DNA of 64,000 bases from Wolbachia endosymbiont of Litomosoides brasiliensis (GTDB lineage Bacteria; Pseudomonadota; Alphaproteobacteria; Rickettsiales; Anaplasmataceae), in the NCBI RefSeq assembly GCF_013366805.1, contig NZ_WQMO01000001.1, positions 62,001-126,000 of the forward strand, read 5' to 3'. Of the stretch, positions 2,468 through 59,719 are shown in pieces. Both the position numbers and the translations under genes were made by a program. Under the pieces are notes generated by a model. That model did no database searches. It was not told the DNA's origin and saw only the letters and a list, made by a program, of their open reading frames with translations. Numbering within the stretch: the first letter of the stretch is position 1; each line of letters opens with the position of its first letter.

Positions 2468-3563
2468 ATACCAATTCCTACTGTACAAGGCACGGGTGGA
2501 TAATAATGGAAAAGAAGCTGTACTGAAGTAAGTAAAATAGCAAATTTAAATGGCATTGAAATCAAAATTACTGGATAGAAAAGTCGTGGAACCAGCAAAA
2601 GAAACGCTGAAGGAGGTGCGAAGTAATGCATACGTTGCAAAAAAAACTAAATGCTGTAATTGCAGCAAAAAATACAGTATAACAGCCGTAGTAAAAATAT
2701 ATTGCATTTCAAGAAGGTGTACCAACTACATAGATAAAGCACCTAAAATTTGGAGGAAAGAAGAATTGTCTACTTCCCTTCAACATCATAGAAAAACTAA
2801 ATTGGATCAGAGTTGATTTAAATAAGTTGAGGTGTAGATGCAAGAAGACCCCAACCCAATATTACTATTAGAGAGATGAGAATAGGGCATTCAGGAAGGT
2901 TTGGCTTGAATGTTAGCAAGTCTACATTACACCGCAATGTGCAGAAAATAAAATTTTCGTATATTATGTCAAGACAATTCATAATGAGCAAGGTAAAGGT
3001 AGATAGGAAGAGTTTTAAAAAACCTAATGAGACTATTTGGTAAGCGCCCTAAACAAGAGTTGTTTTTTTTGGTGAATCGCGGTTTAACACACATCCGAAA
3101 GTTGGGCGCTGGTGTTTGAAAAAGGCATTAAAATGCAGGTTAAAGTAAAATCAGGTAAATAAAATTTTTATCTCTACAGTGCAGCTAATCCTAAAAATGG
3201 AGAGAGTTCTGGCTTATTTGCACCGCGGTCAACACTGATCTTATGAATATTAAATAAATGTTGCAATATTTAAGAACACAAGAAGCCTTTCTTATATGGA
3301 TTATGCTAGTTGGCATAAATTAGAAAATTTAAAGGTACCTAAAAGTATCGAGATTATACATTTACCACCATGTTCACCCGAACTCAATCCTAGTGAAAGA
3401 CTTTGGTTGTATAATAAGACAGAACACTTTACATAATAAAGTCTATAATACAATTGCTTCGTTTGAAAGCACTTTGTGTAAATTCATACCTTTCTTTTTC
3501 GCCCTGTAATTAAACAACTCTGCAATGTTGCTTGTTTGATCTACTAGTGATAAGAATTAATAT
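2468..3563 (+). mobile_element. IS630-family insertion sequence, inactivated copy A
   Basis: Left end TAATACCAATTCC at about 2466 and right end near 3563 match the imperfect terminal inverted repeats of the other copies, with TA at the border as expected for IS630/Tc1-type elements. The transposase remnant starts at 2550 (MALKSKLLDRKVVEPAK) and continues in shifting frames to the C-terminal segment at about 3297-3510. Frameshifts and stops throughout make it non-functional. Confidence 0.8.
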
Positions 3564-4389: not shown

Positions 4390-4462
4390 GCGGGAGTAGT
4401 TCAGTTGGTAGAACATAACCTTGCCAAGGTTGAGGTCGAGGGTTCGAATCCCTTCTTCCGCT
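4390..4462 (+). tRNA. tRNA-Gly (anticodon GCC)
   Basis: A 73-nt cloverleaf. The acceptor arm pairs GCGGGAG with CTTCCGC, the D arm begins GTTC, the anticodon stem is TAACC/GGTTG around the loop TTGCCAA (anticodon GCC at 4423-4425), and the T loop is TTCGAAT. CCA is not encoded. A T-rich tract follows directly and may act as a terminator. Confidence 0.95.
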
Positions 4463-4569
4463 CTTTTTTTCAAGAATTGCCACATGAAAAAATTACTTCA
4501 TCTATTCGGTCAATTTATGGTTAGGGTACAAACATTTTAGGTAGGTAAAAGTGTTCCATAGAAAGGCAA

Positions 4570-4811
4570 AAAATTACTTGGCATACCTTCTAGCTCCCGT
4601 TACCATAGTAACGGAGCTGTTCTATTATAACTTCCTAATCTGGGCAAGTTGGGATGGCAAAAAGATCTTGTGTATTTAGCGTATTAGTGTTTAATTTTTT
4701 GTAGTATTTGTACATTATGTCTTTATAAAGTTTCTAGGTTTTACCTATATAAGTTGAAACGTGCTTATTCAAGGTATTCAACGTCAAGTTTTTAAAATAA
4801 AGAGTTAGTAA
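4570..4811 (+). repeat. Dispersed intergenic repeat 'R', copy 2
   Basis: Shares blocks with the repeat at 30335-30588 over its whole length: AAAAGATCTTGT, then a TTTAATTTTTTGTA block, then GTCTTTATAAAGTT and TTTTACCTATAT, then TCAAGTTTTTAAA. In both places it runs directly into an inverted IS630 half-element at the same point (AAAGAGTTAGTA). That points to a segmental duplication of repeat plus element. Confidence 0.65.
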
Positions 4812-5102
4812 TACTAATTCTTGTTTTTAATTGATCAAATAAGTAGCATTGCAGAGTTGTTTAATTATAGGGTGGGAAAGAAAGGTAACAAATTTGCCAA
4901 AGCGCTCTCAAGCAAGGCAACTGCATTGTAGACTTTATTGCGCAAAACGTTCTGTTTTATATACAAACAAAGTCTCTCAATAGGGTTAAACTCGAGTGAA
5001 TATGGTGGTAGGTATATAGTCTTGATGTTTTTAGGTACCTTTAAGTTTTTTGACTTATGCCGACGAGCATAATCCATGACAAAAAAGACTTCTCGTGTTT
5101 TA
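4812..5102 (-). mobile_element. IS630 3' half-element, inverted, part of composite B
   Basis: A minus-strand fragment beginning at an IS right end (TACTAATTC at 4812). It encodes the C-terminal transposase segment (KNLKVPKNIKTIYLPPYS, then NPIERLCLYIKQN). It has lost about 150 bp relative to the matching fragments at 22657 and 30589. It abuts the plus-strand copy at 5103. Confidence 0.75.
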
Positions 5103-6085
5103 ATGCTAATTCCCACTGCACAAGGAACGGTAGATGATAATAAAAAAAGCCATGCTGCAGTAAGTAAAGTAGTGAGGTTTAATGGCATTGAAATCAAAAT
5201 TATTGGATGAAAAAGTTGGGAATCAGCAAAAGAGGTGCTGAAAAATGTGAGATAATGCATATATTGCAAAAAAACTGAATGCTGTAATTGCAGCAAAGAC
5301 ACATAGTATAGCAGCCATAGTAAAAATGTGTTGCATTTCAAGAACAGCGTTGATTATATGGATGAAGGACCTAAAACTTGAAAGAGAAGGAAAATTATTT
5401 TCTCCTCTTCAACGTTCGTAGAAAAACTAAATTGAATCAGAGTTAATTTGAATAAGTCGAAGTATGGATATAAGAAAACCCTAATATTACAGTTAAAGAA
5501 ATGAGAATAATAATCTAGGGAAAATTTGGCTTGAATATCAGCAAGTCTACAGTACACCGTAATATGCAAAAAATGAAGTTTTTGTATATTGCCGCCAAGA
5601 TCAATTCATAATGAACAAGATAAAGATAGACAGGAAAAGTTAAAAAAAACTAATGAGAATATTGGTAAGTATCCTAAACAAAAGTTATTTTTCTTTAATG
5701 AGTCGTGGTTTGGTGTACATTCGAAAGTTGACACGGGTGATTTGAAAAAGGCGTCGGAACACAGGTTAAAGTAAAATTAGGTAGGCAGAGTTTTTATCTC
5801 TACAGTGCAGTTAATCCTGGCAATGAAGAGCGTGCTAGCTTATTTGCACTGGAATTGTTAACACTGATTGTATGAGTATGTTTCTTAAACAGATGTCACA
5901 ATATTTAAGAATATGGGAAGCCTTTCTTATTATGAATTGTGCTAGTGGCATAAGTCAGAAAATTTAAAGGTACCTAAAAGCGTCAGAATTATATACCTAC
6001 CACCATACTTCCCGAACTCAATCCTATAAAGTCTATAATGCAGTTGCTTTGCTTGAGAGCGCTTTGTGCAAATGAGAATTGGTAT
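5103..6085 (+). mobile_element. IS630-family element, inactivated plus copy of composite B
   Basis: Left end at TTAATGCTAATTCCC (about 5101-5115) and right end AATGAGAATTGGTATTA (6071-6087). It carries transposase pieces in several frames, including ATG at 5182, a central DNA-binding/catalytic portion at about 5590-5770 (PPRSIHNEQDKDRQEK) and a C-terminal portion near 5935-6070. An internal deletion near the right end and several frameshifts inactivate it. Confidence 0.78.
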
Positions 6086-6257
6086 TAGAAAACTCCAATG
6101 CAGGAAATAGGTATTAACCAGGGATTCTTTTTCCTTTTTTTCTATTTGGTAGATTTCTTTATGTTTATAATTAAAGCAGTTCATGAACTGATGCTGAGTA
6201 GTGCCTTATTTATTGTAAAATTTGCTATCAGTTGTTGATAGCTGGAATGTTTGTAAG

Positions 6258-6335
6258 TCAAGGGTTCGAATCCTTCCTCCCACTCTCTTTTCCAAGATAA
6301 TACCGTAAAATTACTTTGCTTATCCGATTAGCCAA
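6258..6335 (+). pseudogene. Decayed duplicate of the tRNA-Gly 3' end and its downstream flank
   Basis: AAGGGTTCGAATCC followed by TTCCTCCCACT resembles the T arm and acceptor 3' strand of the tRNA-Gly at 4390-4462. The similarity continues about 50 bp into the 3' flank (AAAATTACTT, then TATCCGATTAGCCAA against TATTCGGTCAATT). No D or anticodon arm precedes it, so it is a fragment, not a tRNA gene. Confidence 0.65.
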
Positions 6336-22656: not shown

Positions 22657-23095
22657 TAATAGTCCTCATTGTTAGTGGGTCGAATAAGTTACATTACCAA
22701 ATTGTTTAATTGCTGAATGAGAAAGAGGGTAACAAACTTGTACAAAACACTTTCAAACAAAGCAATTGTATTGTAGACTTTAATTACGCAAAATGTTCTG
22801 TTTTATATACAACCAAAGTCTCTCAATAGGATTGAGCTTAGGTGAGTATGGTAGTAGGTATATAATCTCGATATTTTTAGATGCCTTGAAATTTTTTGAC
22901 TTATATCAACTAGTATAATCCATGGAAGAAAGGCTTCTCGTATTCTTAAATATTGTGATATTTGTTCGAGAAATATATTCATGCAATCGGTATTGACATT
23001 CGGTGCAAATAAGCTAAAACTCTCCCCATTTCTAGGATTAACTGCACTGTAGAGATAAAAATTTTTCTACCTAATTTCACTTTACCTGTGTTCTA
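22657..23095 (-). mobile_element. IS630 3' half-element, inverted, part of composite C
   Basis: Begins with an IS right end (CTCATTGTTAGTGGGTC, from about 22657) and encodes on the minus strand the transposase C-terminal half (for example VPSKNIEIIYLPPYS-like and NPIERLWLYIKQN segments), with stops. It ends at GTTCTAATGCC, where the plus copy begins. In the full-length minus copy near 28770 the sequence continues through this point as GTTCTAACGCC. Confidence 0.75.
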
Positions 23096-24183
23096 ATGCC
23101 AATTCCCGCTGTACAAGAAACAGATAGACAAAATGAAAAAGGAGCCATACTGAAGTATGGTAAAATAGCGAGGTTTAAATGGCATTAAAATCAGAATTAT
23201 TGGATGAAGGAATTATAGAATCAGCAAAAGAGACGCTGAAGGAAGTGCGAGGTAACGCATGTATGTAAAAGAACTAAATGCTGTAATTGCGGTAAAACGC
23301 AGTGTAACCGCTGTAGTAAAAATATGTTGCATTTCAAGGATATGCACCAACTTCATGGATAAAGCACTTTAAATTTGGAGGAGAAGAGAAATTGTCTACT
23401 CCCTTCAACGTTATAGGAAAACTAGATTGAATCAGAGTCAATTTAAACAAGTTGAAGTGTAGATGCAAGAAAACCCCAATATTACTATGATGAGAATAAG
23501 ACATTCAGGAAAAACTTGGCTTAGATGTAGGAAAGTATACAGTACACTGTGATGTGCAAAAAATGAAGTTTTCGTATATTGCGTCAAGCCAATTCATAGT
23601 GAACAAGGCAAAGGTAGATGGAAGAGTTCTAAAAAAAATTAATTAAGACTATTGGTAATTATCCTGAACAAGAGTTGTTCATCTTTGATGAATCGCGGTT
23701 TGACACATATCCGGAAGTTAAACGCTGGTGTTTAAAAAAGGCGTAAGAACACGGGTTAGGGTGAAATTGGGCAAATAAAATTTTATCTCTACAGTACAGT
23801 TAATCCTAGGAATAGGGAGAGTTCTAGCTTATTTGCACCGAATGTTAACACTGATTGTGTGAATTTTTCTTAAACATAATGTTACAATATCTAAAAACAA
23901 GGGAAGCCCTTCTTGTCGTGGATTATGCTAGTCGGCATAAGTCAAAAGATTTAAAAGTACCTAAAAATATCGAGATTATATACCTACCACATACTCACTA
24001 AAGCTCAGTCCTATTGAGAGACTTTGGTTGTATATAAAACAAAACACTTTGCATAATAAAGCCGATAATACAATTACTTCGTTCGAAAGCACTTTGTGTA
24101 AATTCATACCTTTCTTTTTCACTCCGCAATTAAACAACTCTGCAGTGTCACTTATTTGACCTATTAACAATGAAAATCCGTAT
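23096..24183 (+). mobile_element. IS630-family element, inactivated plus copy of composite C
   Basis: Left end CTAATGCCAATTCCC (about 23093) and right end ACAATGAAAATCCGTAT (to 24183). Near-full-length at about 1.09 kb. The transposase can be followed from the ATG at 23179 through shifting frames to the C-terminal part at about 23900-24130. Frameshifts and in-frame stops inactivate it. Confidence 0.8.
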
Positions 24184-28321: not shown

Positions 28322-29393
28322 AGTACCAATTCTCATTGTTAGTGGGTCAAAAAGTGACATTTTGAAGTTGTTTAATTATTGAGTGAGAAAGAGAGGTAAT
28401 AAATTTGCACAAAGCGCTTTCAAGCAAAGCAATTGTATTACAGACTTTAATTACGCAAAATGTTCTGTTTTATATACAACCAAAGTCTCTCAATGGAGGA
28501 TTGAGTTCTAGCAAGTACAGTGGTAGGTAATAATCTCGGTATTTTTAAGTGCCTTTAAATTTTTTGACTTATGCTAACTGGTACAATCAATGACAAGAAG
28601 GGCTTATTGTGTTCTTAAATATTGTGACATTTGTTCAAGAAATATGTTCATACAATCAGTGTTGACATTCAGTACAAATAAGCTAGAAAACCCTCTCTAT
28701 TTTTAGGATTAACTGCACTGTAGAGATAAAAATTTTGTTTACCTGATTTTATTTTAACCTGTGTTCTAACGCCTCTTTTAAACATCTTGTCCAACTTTCG
28801 GATGTGTGTCAAACTGCGATTCATCAAAGAAAAATAACTCTTGTTCAAGATACTTACCAATAGTCTTATTAAATTTTTTAAAACCTTTCCTATCTATCTT
28901 TACCTTACTCATTATGGATTGGTCTTGGCACAATATACGGAAACTTCATTTTTTGCATACCACGGTGTATTGTAGACTTGCTGACATTCAAGCTAAATTT
29001 TTCCTAGATTTCTCATTTCTTTAATTAATGGCAATGGGTTTCCTTGTATCTATACTTCAACTTGTTCAAATTGACTCTAATTCAATCTAGTTTTTCCAGA
29101 CGTTGATGGGAAGTAGACAATTTTTCTTCTCTTCCAAATTTTAGTACTTTATTCATGTGGTCAATGCTGTTCTTGAAATGTAACATTTTTGCTACAGCTG
29201 TTATACTGTGTTTTTTTGCTGCAATTACAGCATTTAGTTATTTTACACTTTCTTCAGTGTTTCTTTTGCTGATTCTACGACTTTTTACATCCAATAAGTT
29301 TGATTTTAATGCCATTAAACCTCGTTATTTTACCATACAGTGCACTCCTTTTCCATTGTTGTCTGTCCGTTTCTTGTCAGCGGGCATTGATAT
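28322..29393 (-). mobile_element. IS630-family insertion sequence, full-length minus copy D
   Basis: A single complete-length element (about 1.07 kb). Its right end, TACCAATTCTCATTG, is at 28323 and its left end, GGGCATTGATA, at about 29382-29392. On the minus strand the transposase can be read in pieces: N-terminal part near 29320, central YSYISMTMLTK-like parts with FFFDESQFDTHPKVGQ-like residues near 28790-28860, KIKSGKQNFYLYSAVNP near 28690, and C-terminal part near 28420-28560. It is interrupted by frameshifts. It shows the uninterrupted form of the site where the composites are joined (GTTCTAACGCC, about 28773). Confidence 0.8.
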
Positions 29394-30334: not shown

Positions 30335-30588
30335 AAAAATGCAAAAAACCACTTGACAAACTTTGCTATTTCTCTACCACATGATGGTGGGGCTATTTTA
30401 TATAACTTCCCAATGTAAACTAAAATGACAAGAAGATCTTGTATTTGGTATACTGTTATTTAATTTTTTGTACTATGTGCACCGTATGTCTTTATAAAAT
30501 CTAGGTTTTTACCTATATGAGCTAAAACGCACTTGTAAAGCGTTTAAGCTTCACCGGGTATCAAGTTTTTAAAGTAAAGAGTTAGTAG
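30335..30588 (+). repeat. Dispersed intergenic repeat 'R', copy 3
   Basis: Starts with GCAAAAAACCACTTGACAAA and continues through AGAAGATCTTGTATTTGG, GTCTTTATAAAATCTAGG and TATCAAGTTTTTAAAG to the IS border. Its whole length parallels the copy at 4570-4811. The left block also matches the start of the copy at 2085. Confidence 0.65.
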
Positions 30589-31022
30589 TGCCAATTCTCA
30601 TTGTTGGTGGGTCAAATAAGTGACATTGCAGAGTTGTTTAATTGTGGAGTGAGAAAGGTATGAATTTACACAAAGTGCTTTCAAACGAAGCAATTCTATC
30701 ATAGACTTTATTATGCAAAGTGTTCTGTTTTATATACAACCAAAGTCTCTCAATCGGCTTGAGCTTGGGTGAATATGGTGATAGGTATATAATCCGATAT
30801 TTTTAGGTACCTTTAAATTTTCTGATTTATGCTAATTAGCACAATCCATATAAGATGGGGCTTCTCGTGTTCTTAAATATTGTAACATTCATTCAAGAAA
30901 TATACATACAATTAGTGCTAACGTTTGGTGCAAATAAGCTAGGATTCTCTCCATTTCTTGGATTAACTGCACTATAGAGACGAAAATTTTGTCTACCTAG
31001 TTTTACTTTAATCTGCATTCTG
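30589..31022 (-). mobile_element. IS630 3' half-element, inverted, part of composite E
   Basis: Begins with a right end (TGCCAATTCTCATTG at 30589) and encodes the transposase C-terminal half on the minus strand with stops. It ends next to the left end of the plus copy at 31023. Same arrangement as at 4812-5102 and 22657-23095. Confidence 0.77.
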
Positions 31023-32111
31023 ATACTAATTGCCACTGCACAAGGAACGCGGATAGACAATAATGGAAAAGAAGCTATGTTGAAGTAAGTAAAATAGCGA
31101 GATTTAAATGGCGTTGAAATCGAAACTATTGGATGAAAAAGCTGTGGAATTAGTAAAGGAAATGCTGAAGAAAGTGCGAAATAACGCATATGTGCAAAAA
31201 AACTAAATATTGAATTGCAACAGAAAAGTACAGTATAACGGCCGTAGCAAGAATATGTTTCATTTCAAGAACAGCATTTACTATATGGGTAAAGTACCTA
31301 AAATTTGGAAAAGAAGAAAAATTGTCTACTTCCCATCAACGTCTGGAAAAACTAGATTGAATTAGAGTCAATTTGAACAAGTTGAAGTATAGATACAAGG
31401 AAACCCATTGCCATTAATTAAAGAAATGAGAAATCTAGGAAAAATTTAGCTTGAATGTCAGCAAGTCTACAATACACCGTGGTATGCAAAAAATGAAGTT
31501 TTCGTATATTGTGCCAAGACCAATTCATAACGAATAAGATAAAGATGGACAGGAAGAGTTTTAAAAAAAACTTAATGAGGCTGTTGGTAAGTAGCCTGAA
31601 CAAGAGTTATTTTTCTTTAATGAATCACGATTTAGCACACATTTGAAAGTTGGATACGAGTGTTTAAAAAAGGTGTTAGAATACAGTTAAAGCAAAATTA
31701 GGTAAATAAAATTTTTACCTCTACAGTACAGTTAATCCTAAAAATGGAGAGAGTTCTAGCTTATTTGTACCGAAAGTCAACACTGATCGTATGAGTATAT
31801 TTCTTGAACAAATGCGCAATATTTAAGGACGCAAGAGGCCTTTCTTATATGGATTATGCTGGTTGGCATAAATCAGAAGGTTTAAAGGTACCTAAGAATA
31901 TTGAAATTATATACCTATCACCATATTCACCCAAGCTCAAGCCGATTGAGAGACTTTGGTTGTATATAAAACAGAACACTTTGCATAATAAAGTCTATGA
32001 TAGAATTGCTTCGTTTGAAAGCACTTTGTGTAAATTCATACCTTTCTCACTCCACAATTAAACAACTCTGCAATGTCACTTATTTGACCCACTAACAATG
32101 AGAATTAGTAT
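31023..32111 (+). mobile_element. IS630-family element, inactivated plus copy of composite E
   Basis: Left end GATACTAATTGCCACTG (about 31022) and right end ACAATGAGAATTAGTAT (to 32111). The transposase is readable from ATG 31109 (MALKSKLLDEKAVELVKEML) onward in broken frames. The longest intact piece, 31804-32061, contains the C-terminal DDE region (MDYAGWHKSEGLKVPKN, then KPIERLWLYIKQN). Frameshifts inactivate it. Confidence 0.8.
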
Positions 32112-48823: not shown

Positions 48824-49680
48824 ATACCAATTACCACTGTACAAGAAACGAATAGACAATAATGGAAAAGAAGCCTTAATTGTAGTAAAAAAATACAGTA
48901 TAACAGCCATAATAAAAATATGTTTCATTTTAAGAACAACTAATTGCGTAAGTAAAGCATCTGAAATTTGAAGGAGAAGGAAAGTTGTTGCTCCCCTCAA
49001 TTTCGTAGAAAAACTGGATTGGATCAGAGTCAATTTGAGCAAGTTGAAGTATGGATACGAGAAACCTTAATATTACCATTAAAAAATGAAGATAGGAATC
49101 ATCCAGGGAAAATTTGTTTTGAATGTCAGCAAGTCTATAGTAAGAGGCTGTTTTGGTAAGCGCCCTGGATAAGAGTTATTTTCCTTTGATGGGTTGCGGT
49201 TTGTATACATTTGAAAGTTGAACACGGGTGATTTAAAAAGGGCGTTAGACATAAGTTAAAGTAAAATTAGGTAGATGAATTTTTTATCTATGCAGTGCAG
49301 TTAATTCTAGAAATGGGGGGAGTTTTAGCTTGTTTACACCGAATGTTAACACTGATTGTATAAATATATTTCTTGAACAAATATCACAATATTTAAAAAC
49401 ACGAAAAGTCTTTCTTATCATGGTTAGTTGGCATAAGTCAAAGAATTTAAAGGTACCTAAAAATATCGAGATTATATACCTACCACTATGCTCACCTGAG
49501 CTTAATTCTATTGAGAAGCTTTGGTTGTATATAAACAGGACATTTTGCGTAATAAAATCTATGATACAGTTGCTTTGCTTGAAAGCGCTTTGTGCAAGTT
49601 TATTATCTCTCTTTCTCACTCCACAATTAAACAGCTCTGCAATGTCACTTATTTAACCTATTAACAGTGAGAATTGATAT
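48824..49680 (+). mobile_element. IS630-family element, internally deleted copy F
   Basis: Left end TAATACCAATTACCACTG (from about 48823) and right end GTGAGAATTGATAT (to 49680). Two internal deletions remove the transposase N-terminus (near 48876) and part of the centre (near 49139). The C-terminal region survives best (49330-49656, SWHKSKNLKVPKNIEIIYLP). It is inactive. Confidence 0.78.
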
Positions 49681-57298: not shown

Positions 57299-59719
57299 AT
57301 GCGTAAGTTTTTGTTAGTATTGGCGATCTTCTTGTTATCTAGTTGCGAGAATCGCTGTATCAAGCCAGAGAGTTTGTTAAACTTGCAAGAAAAATTAGAT
57401 GTAGTTTCAACACAACAGAAGTGGGTTGACTCTGGTGTTTACATTTCAGATAGAATAAAAGTAACGGAAATTAGTATAGTGCCTAGCAAGGTAAATTTTT
57501 GTCCGCAGTATGAAGATTTTGCAATTAGGCCCGAAGTAGACAACGGTACAATCCCACGTACATTACCATTTGCACTTAGAGCAGGTGATTCGATAAGCTT
57601 CAGTGTCATTGGAAGTAAAATGTGTAAAGATAAAAAAGATGATACAATCAGGTATATAAAAATCGATGAAAAGTGCAGAGAGCAAGAAACAGAGTATTTT
57701 GCACATGTTTTAAATCAAAATGAATGTCAGGCAATATGGCGGGATGGGAAACATCAGTACACAATATGTCCTAATAAATATATTGTAGGTAATCTACAAT
57801 GGTTGAGTGGAAAAGAGTACTGGAATCCAAATTTTTCGAAGTTAGATCAAGATGAAGAGGAAATTAAAAATATCATAAATTTTATAAAACAAGAAGAAAA
57901 CATAGACTGTAGCAGTTTTTCAAGCAATCATAAAGGTGAAATAGATGCGCGCATTTTAAATTTACTTTGCGGACATACATGTGAATTTGCTTCTAGCAAC
58001 AAAAACAAAGGTTGTGTGTATACTGAATACTCTAGTATAGAAGCTGAAATATTCCAGTCCATTAATAGTACTAGTGGTAAATCTATTGATGTTGAAGCTA
58101 TTAGTAAAATACTAAAGGAAAAGCAGGTAAAGACTGGCATTACATTATTAAGTATTGACATGGATGGTGAAAAATTTGAACCCATTTCGACGGGTGGCAT
58201 ATGTACCAATTGTGATTGCAAAATAGATAATGACCATCCAGTACCAAAATTAACTTTTAGGTTGGGTGATAGCAGTGGTAAAGGTGGTTTCAACATAAGA
58301 GTAACAAAAAAACATAGCCTAAAAGATAACTTATATATACGGGTTTCTGACAAACTTCCTGAGCATAACCCTGGTGGAAATCAGGGAGATATACCTGTAG
58401 ACATTGGTAGAACTCATGATATTCAGTATATGGAAGATTTAAAAGAAAAATTAAGAGGCAAAAGCGGCATTATATATTACGGAATAAAAGATCACGGCTG
58501 CGGTTATGAAAAAAATGAAGGTCAATTTAACATTAACTTAACAATTAAAGAGCCACCTATGAAAACCTTCAGCGCAATATATAATTTTTTTGATGAGAAA
58601 ATAAAAACTATATTTTTTGGCTCTAGCTACAAAGATCCCAACGCAATTCATTCTAATACTAGCCTTGCCAAGTCTCTTTACCAGAGTTTTATATTGTCTG
58701 GCAGGGCAAAAACCATTAGATCTACAACAGTATCACTATTAGTAGTGTATATAATCTTATATACCGTTTATTACTTCTTTGGGTTATCTCATATTTCTAT
58801 ATATGAATTTTTAATTATATGCGTAAAGATAGGAATTATCACCCAGTTGTTGCGGGATGACAGTTGGAGTTTTTTCTATAACAGTGCATTTTCTATTTTT
58901 ATTGATACTCCAAAACATTTAATAGAAATAGCAAACTTCAGGGGCACAACATCAAATGTTTTTGAGTTCCTCGATTTGCCATTAAATAGATTTTTGTCAT
59001 TACATTCAGTGTTGTTAATAGTATCTCTTATATTTTCTGGTCCTTTGGGCATTGTATCTTTCTGTTTAGTGATTTGGGGTTTAATAACAGTGAGCTTATC
59101 TATTTTTAATGCCCTATTTTCTTTTATTACATCCATGGCAATAGTTGCGCTATTACTATCTTTAGCACCTATCTTTATTATTTGCCTTCTATTTGCGTAT
59201 ACTAGGCAGATGTTTCACAACTGGCTCAAATACCTGGCAAGATTTGCGATTCATCCAGTAGTGCTTTTAATTTCCATATCACTGATAAGTCAAGTTATGG
59301 ATTACATTATATATTCAGTGTTTGATTTTGAAATCTGTTCTACATGTATACTTAATATTAATCTGAAAATTTTTGAATCTTGTATTCTACACGGGTATGC
59401 TTCCAAGTATACACCTAACATCACTGCTATGGTGGCTTTTGTTATCTTAGGTCACGCTATGAAGGCCTTAGTTGAAGCTTCTTCAAAAATATCCGACTCA
59501 CTATTTGGTGTTTATATAATGAACGAACCTGGAAAACAATATCAACAGAGTTTAATGGAAACAGTAGGGTTGGACGAGGAAAATGTTCAAAGAAGAAAAA
59601 GTAGAAGCGGAAAGGGAGGTGCTCCTCAACAGTTGGATGCACCAAGCCAAAATGCCCAAATACCGCAAAGAGCCCTCGTGCCTAGAATACCTACAGGAGG
59701 AGGCAGTGGCCCGTCATGA
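57299..59719 (+). CDS. virB6: VirB6-family type IV secretion membrane protein, paralogue 2
   Basis: 806 residues. The N-terminus MRKFLLVLAIFLLSSCENRC looks like a lipoprotein signal with Cys16 in the lipobox. A long extramembrane domain (about 20-470) contains many cysteines (for example ICTNCDCK). The VirB6/TrbL core of several transmembrane helices follows (about 475-730, with LSLAPIFIICLLFAYTRQMF), and then a Gln/Pro-rich tail. It follows virB6-1 by 50 bp and overlaps paralogue 3 by 4 bp (ATGA). Confidence 0.92.
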   Translation: MRKFLLVLAIFLLSSCENRCIKPESLLNLQEKLDVVSTQQKWVDSGVYISDRIKVTEISIVPSKVNFCPQYEDFAIRPEVDNGTIPRTLPFALRAGDSISFSVIGSKMCKDKKDDTIRYIKIDEKCREQETEYFAHVLNQNECQAIWRDGKHQYTICPNKYIVGNLQWLSGKEYWNPNFSKLDQDEEEIKNIINFIKQEENIDCSSFSSNHKGEIDARILNLLCGHTCEFASSNKNKGCVYTEYSSIEAEIFQSINSTSGKSIDVEAISKILKEKQVKTGITLLSIDMDGEKFEPISTGGICTNCDCKIDNDHPVPKLTFRLGDSSGKGGFNIRVTKKHSLKDNLYIRVSDKLPEHNPGGNQGDIPVDIGRTHDIQYMEDLKEKLRGKSGIIYYGIKDHGCGYEKNEGQFNINLTIKEPPMKTFSAIYNFFDEKIKTIFFGSSYKDPNAIHSNTSLAKSLYQSFILSGRAKTIRSTTVSLLVVYIILYTVYYFFGLSHISIYEFLIICVKIGIITQLLRDDSWSFFYNSAFSIFIDTPKHLIEIANFRGTTSNVFEFLDLPLNRFLSLHSVLLIVSLIFSGPLGIVSFCLVIWGLITVSLSIFNALFSFITSMAIVALLLSLAPIFIICLLFAYTRQMFHNWLKYLARFAIHPVVLLISISLISQVMDYIIYSVFDFEICSTCILNINLKIFESCILHGYASKYTPNITAMVAFVILGHAMKALVEASSKISDSLFGVYIMNEPGKQYQQSLMETVGLDEENVQRRKSRSGKGGAPQQLDAPSQNAQIPQRALVPRIPTGGGSGPS

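What the first reader, a model, noticed from the sequence alone, without database searches (positions are those of the whole stretch)
4812..6085. Composite IS630 unit with two outward right ends, seen three times
At 4812-6085, 22657-24183 and 30589-32111 an inverted 3' half of an IS630 element abuts a direct copy at the same internal TA. The full-length copy near 28773 shows the uninterrupted site. Nested insertion into that TA would create it, but the far half of the outer element is missing in all three places. The outer borders are then two copies of the same right end, flanking an inverted repeat. Either the composite moved as one unit or it was copied by segmental duplication.
Basis: partly seen in the sequence, partly recalled or inferred. 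Interest (0 to 1): 0.6.

Follow-up and report, generated by a model that had tools for sequence, protein, structure and literature searches.

The report
Self-nested IS630 copies scrambled by recombination
In this Wolbachia genome, about 17% of which is one old, decayed jumping gene, copies that had jumped into each other were later cut apart and reshuffled by ordinary recombination, leaving many half-plus-whole fragments rather than a new two-right-ended transposon.

Summary
The window lies in wLbra (Wolbachia of Litomosoides brasiliensis). The half-plus-full structures are real, but not as described. B and C share the junction at element position ~658; A's is at ~808. The three are a sample. 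One ~1100-bp IS630 family covers 17% of the genome, with 70 junctions where one copy's exact end abuts the inside of another, at about ten recurrent sites. All 70 are inverted, and off-centre sites keep the shorter outer arm 52 times to 2.

Complete genomes of other Wolbachia with young copies explain the origin. Nested insertions occur there in both orientations, with both halves present and an exact 3-bp target duplication. One sits at the position homologous to 658 in an element only 74% identical. Most one-sided young forms have mismatched outer duplications, as do about 30% of plain copies in that genome: recombination between copies swaps flanks.

Best reading: repeated self-insertion at preferred sites, then loss of direct nests, flank exchange and loss of long inverted arms. 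Unit transposition by two right ends is not excluded but lacks support. Segmental duplication is not supported. A 3-bp TNA duplication, where published IS630 elements duplicate TA, is a notable by-product.

The parts
4812..5103 (-). A: inverted right-end arm of an outer IS630 copy (element positions ~807-1100)
5104..6089 (+). A: inner IS630 copy with internal deletions near its right end (positions 1-931, 973-1020, last ~10 bp)
22657..23100 (-). B: inverted right-end arm (positions ~658-1100)
23099..24182 (+). B: full-length inner IS630 copy
28324..29392 (-). full-length IS630 copy with the uninterrupted 658 site near 28773
30593..31021 (-). C: inverted right-end arm (positions ~658-1096)
31024..32110 (+). 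C: full-length inner IS630 copy
30607..30793 (.). 187 bp of the C arm exactly identical to the inner copy at 31906-32092 (recent conversion between the two inverted arms)
31312..31501 (.). 190 bp of the C inner copy exactly identical to the neighbouring copy at 28941-29130 (conversion between separate copies)
2469..3562 (+). plain full-length IS630 copy
48825..49675 (+). plain IS630 copy with internal deletions

Best explanation
An IS630-family element (~1100 bp, ends TACCAATTC...GAATTGGTA, target CTWAG, 3-bp TNA duplication) once amplified to a very high copy number in the wLbra lineage and repeatedly inserted into its own copies at a few internal sites that match its target. SHOWN: such nests form by normal insertion in both orientations with both halves and a 3-bp duplication; the same internal site was hit independently in another Wolbachia; target duplications of plain copies are mismatched in copy-rich genomes, which indicates that recombination between copies exchanges flanks. 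INFERRED: (1) direct-orientation nests are removed by deletion between tandem repeats; (2) crossovers inside the inner copy with other copies separate the two halves of inverted nests, giving half-plus-full units with two right ends or two left ends and, when two such products meet, three-part units with non-matching halves; (3) units with a long inverted arm and a short spacer are lost by inverted-repeat instability, so only short arms survive. The A, B and C units are survivors of this, not copies of one mobile composite.
For: Many junction sites, each an exact element end in a TNA target; used sites are enriched for the element's own target motif (p=0.008). Complete two-sided nests with the empty site known: C10 in wLbra (both sides ~658), L192 in G001 (homologous site, TGA duplicated), G005 418997, 435276 and 1038809. 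Young G005: about 6 direct and 6 inverted groups; wLbra 0 of 70 direct (Fisher p=3e-6). Plain copies keep an identical TNA duplication in 65 of 67 cases in G001/G016/G059/G018, but 83 of 118 in G005 and 18 of 24 in G022, as flank exchange predicts. In wLbra 11 of 12 three-part units carry non-matching halves. One-sided G005 units at 58761, 254598, 874406 and 1065980 have mismatched outer duplications; the two matched ones (854226, 1050024) are direct nests explicable by tandem-repeat deletion. The 658 arms are no more alike (81.0%) than random copies (81.5-81.9%), and no diagnostic sites exist. Exact 187- and 190-bp tracts show conversion between copies.
Against: In wLbra itself the duplications are too decayed to decide (plain copies 11 of 17 match, two-part units 4 of 8). 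Some junctions recur more than target strength predicts: 658 eighteen times; in G005 position 881 three times and 948 twice although they rank only 17th and 27th, which could mean the composites were copied. The top-scoring internal sites of the consensus (848, 441, 613) are unused. Separated neighbours show no orientation bias at 500-8000 bp, so deletion between direct repeats must act mainly on abutting copies. The short-arm rule is strict in wLbra but not in the young genomes (812-bp arm in G005, 1029-bp in G001), and its cause is inferred.
Confidence: 0.7

Rival explanations
1. The composite transposes as one unit: transposase pairs the outer right end of the half copy with the right end of the inner copy (or two left ends for the mirror form) and moves the shorter composite, leaving the other half behind.
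For: Explains in one step why the far half is missing, why the outer border is an exact end next to a TNA target, why the shorter arm is kept (52 to 2), and why one junction (658) occurs 18 times at unrelated loci. In G005 junctions 881 and 948 occur at 3 and 2 loci.
Against: Four of six scorable one-sided units in young G005, including both inverted ones, have mismatched outer duplications, whereas ~70% of plain copies match; the two matches are direct nests that tandem deletion explains. 658 arms do not cluster. Needs separate unit mobility for every junction site. Three-part units with non-matching halves are not explained.
Confidence: 0.17
2. Segmental duplication of one composite locus.
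For: A and C have similar ~110-160-bp left flanks (76%).
Against: A and C have different junctions; the flank is a dispersed repeat found elsewhere; right flanks differ; other composites share no two-sided flanks.
Confidence: 0.03
3. Single-event insertion with target deletion: the two ends attack two different sites, in the outer copy or in neighbouring DNA, and the stretch between is lost (aberrant transposition).
For: Three-part units always have the left-half position below or equal to the right-half position, and both junctions are exact ends at target-like sites.
Against: Young two-sided nests show ordinary insertion with a 3-bp duplication and no deletion; no young nest with a target deletion was seen.
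Confidence: 0.07
4. Assembly artefact of a short-read draft.
For: wLbra is a 41-contig Illumina-based draft and many contigs end inside the element.
Against: Copies differ by ~20%, so reads should place uniquely across most junctions; analogous nests exist in single-contig genomes G001 and G005.
Confidence: 0.03

Closest known systems
IS630 family insertion sequences (e.g. ISY100, PMC2170065)
   Same: DDE_3 transposase matching NCBIfam transpos_IS630 above cut-off in a young relative; CCAATTC-type terminal inverted repeats; TA-rich CTWAG target resembling the reported CTAG preference
   Different: 3-bp TNA target duplication (65 of 67 copies in four genomes, and exact in nested events whose empty site is known), while published IS630 elements duplicate TA; transposase split over two frames
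Ectopic recombination between Wolbachia IS copies or ends (Ling and Cordaux 2010, PMC3004938)
   Same: homologous recombination within or between IS copies rearranges element halves and flanks in Wolbachia
   Different: here it acts on self-nested copies of one very abundant family and leaves half-plus-full units
Maize double Ds and half-double Ds (from general knowledge, not tested here)
   Same: one element inserted in inverted orientation into another copy, and derivatives that keep one half
   Different: hAT family in a plant; the wLbra units are explained by recombination rather than by aberrant transposition

Membership tests
IS630 family | IS630 transposase with DDE_3 catalytic domain | tested here: met
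   on a young G005 copy, 87% identical to the wLbra consensus
IS630 family | terminal inverted repeats | tested here: met
   TACCAATTCCC...GAGAATTGGTA
IS630 family | insertion at TA with 2-bp TA duplication | tested here: not met
   3-bp TNA duplication in young copies and in nested events with known empty site; transposase homology still places it with the family, as a variant
Composite transposon moving as a unit | identical target duplication at the outer borders | tested here: inconclusive
   wLbra 4 of 8; G005 one-sided units 2 of 6, both explicable otherwise
Composite transposon moving as a unit | copies descend from one composite (shared derived sites) | tested here: inconclusive
   no clustering or diagnostic sites, but a burst from identical founders would also look like this
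Segmental duplication | homologous flanks on both sides | tested here: not met
Nested (self) insertion | both halves of the outer copy present with a target duplication | tested here: met
   met at C10:44962-47058 in wLbra, in L192 and in three G005 loci; not met at A, B and C themselves, which have lost one half

The most novel reading that the evidence does not exclude
The IS630 transposase can synapse two like ends (right-right or left-left) and mobilise the resulting inverted-repeat composite, with a preference for the shorter composite, so that self-nesting continually creates new, longer mobile units.
Probability: 0.15. Interest if true: 0.6.

Novelty: new member of a known kind. Interest (0 to 1): 0.38.

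Why it matters
It shows what becomes of a bacterial insertion-sequence explosion over long times: young genomes hold self-nests in both orientations with both halves, the old one only inverted ones with short arms and reshuffled halves. It also warns that a recurrent IS junction is not evidence for a mobile composite, and it reveals that filarial wLbra, from a group published as poor in transposable elements, carries a decayed IS family over a sixth of its genome.

Tried and rejected
A genome-contig scan with the gidA protein returned mostly distant bacteria and did not name the organism; total length and contig number matched wLbra in PMC8116671. Duplications in wLbra as a test of unit movement: too decayed even in plain copies. 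Empty sites within wLbra by joining flanks: only uninformative matches. Empty site of B in relatives: gene order around B does not appear to be kept. Diagnostic-site test for a single origin of the 658 units: nothing. Alternating orientation of spaced neighbours as a sign of recombination: not seen.

Full report
WHERE IT IS. The window is G000:C6:62001-126000 of a 1,046,149-bp, 41-contig genome, which matches in total length and contig number the draft of wLbra, the Wolbachia of the filarial nematode Litomosoides brasiliensis, supergroup D (PMC8116671). I read 1.02 Mb of it.

THE ELEMENT. A consensus of twenty full copies gives a 1100-bp element TACCAATTCCC...GAGAATTRGTA. Related young copies in other Wolbachia, ~85-87% identical to the consensus, encode an IS630 transposase (NCBIfam NF033545, 155 bits against a cut-off of 100; Pfam DDE_3), split over two reading frames. 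In wLbra 292 elements or pieces (about 100 near full length) cover 17% of the sequence; full-length matches average 86% identity to the consensus, and copies compared with each other are ~81-82% identical with no close groups. I read this as one old burst followed by independent decay.

CHECK OF THE OBSERVATION. B and C join the exact left end of an inner copy to position ~658 of an inverted outer copy; A does so at ~808. The far half is absent in all three. Genome-wide there are 70 junctions in which one copy's end abuts the inside of another: 40 with the left end next to a right-hand arm, 30 with the right end next to a left-hand arm; all 70 are in inverted orientation, and all 84 abutting pairs of elements are inverted, while pairs 500-8000 bp apart show both orientations about equally. 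Junctions cluster at ~65, ~260, ~390-418, ~569, ~658, ~715, ~744, ~808 and ~1040. Away from the centre the shorter outer arm is kept in 52 cases and the longer in 2. Twelve non-edge units have arms on both sides, but only one (C10:44962-47058, positions 658/660) has matching halves; the other eleven combine different sites.

WHAT YOUNG GENOMES SHOW. Complete relatives with young copies give the ordinary state. Plain copies carry an identical 3-bp TNA duplication in 21/22 (G001), 29/30 (G016), 9/9 (G059) and 6/6 (G018) cases; in G022 18/24 and in G005 only 83/118 match. I read the mismatches as flank exchange by recombination between identical copies. G005 has 12 groups of abutting copies: about six direct and six inverted, three of them two-sided with a 3-bp overlap of the halves (418997, 435276, 1038809). 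G001 holds a two-sided inverted nest at the position homologous to 658 in an element 74% identical to the wLbra consensus (L192), an independent hit of the same internal site, and one direct nest. So insertion itself has no strong orientation rule, and the 0/70 in wLbra is best read as a survival effect (Fisher p = 3e-6). One-sided units at 58761, 254598, 874406 and 1065980 have mismatched outer duplications, as expected if a crossover with another copy supplied one flank; 854226 and 1050024 match and are direct nests from which one tandem repeat could have been deleted.

TARGET SITES. Flanks define the target as CTWAG. The ten internal regions used in wLbra contain better target matches than random stretches of equal width (p = 0.008), so recurrence of a junction need not mean common descent. 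It is not a full account: the best-scoring sites are unused and 658 is used 18 times; in G005 positions 881 and 948 recur at modest scores.

DESCENT TEST. The 658 arms are no more alike to each other (81.0%) than to random copies (81.5%), and no site distinguishes them. This fits independent nests, but would also fit a composite that spread in the same burst. Ten of 13 arms are closer to their own inner copy than to the average inner copy, and C has a 187-bp exact tract between arm and inner copy as well as a 190-bp exact tract shared with the separate copy at 28324-29392: gene conversion between copies has gone on.

MECHANISM. Shown: self-insertion with 3-bp duplication, recurrence of the 658 site in a second lineage, mismatched duplications in copy-rich genomes, conversion tracts, absence of direct nests in the old genome. 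Inferred: direct nests are lost by deletion between abutting direct repeats; crossovers in the inner copy split inverted nests into right-right and left-left units and recombine them into three-part units with unmatched halves; long inverted arms with short spacers are lost. Unit transposition by two like ends remains possible (about 0.15-0.17).

KNOWN OR NEW. IS630 elements are described as inserting at TA with a TA duplication (PMC2170065), and ectopic recombination within Wolbachia IS copies is described (PMC3004938). The composite units are a new instance of known processes. The TNA duplication departs from the family description; a search of the held papers for it found nothing, but ISfinder could not be consulted.

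LIMITS. The short-arm rule is explained only by inference. The wLbra assembly is a draft; parts could be nuclear transfers from the host assembly, which I did not test. The counts rest on BLAST pieces, and some decayed junctions are assigned only to within ~10 bp (more where the junction is deleted). The number of junctions is not the number of independent events.

Noticed in passing
L192, L196-L211, L233, L307, L308, L335 (G001, G005, G016, G018, G022, G059): This Wolbachia IS630 group makes a 3-bp TNA target duplication (CTWAG target), exact in nested events where the empty site is known, whereas IS630 elements are described as duplicating TA.
   Followed up: yes
whole genome G000 (wLbra): One decayed IS630 family covers about 17% of wLbra, although the genome paper stresses low transposable-element content in filarial Wolbachia (with more in supergroup D).
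   Followed up: partly
window 4654-4811 and 30425-30592: The left flanks of A and C are copies of a dispersed ~110-160-bp repeat and both IS arms start at the same position in it (GAGTTAGTA); further copies lie elsewhere in the genome, one next to a plain IS copy on C8.
   Followed up: partly
window 4390-4463 and 6257-6297: A tRNA-Gly gene precedes composite A, and a 41-bp partial duplicate of its 3' end and downstream bases (83%) follows it.
   Followed up: no
G000:C1 2828-11316 (L035): Three IS units on C1 share 93-100% identical flanks, pointing to a recent tandem segmental duplication.
   Followed up: no
L196 (G005) 120-1125: The transposase is encoded in two ORFs (95 and 191 aa) in different frames, suggesting programmed frameshifting; the wLbra consensus shows a frame change near an A-rich run.
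   Followed up: no
wLbra contig C7: IS copies on contig C7 are more fragmented by internal deletions than elsewhere; the contig may have a different history.
   Followed up: no
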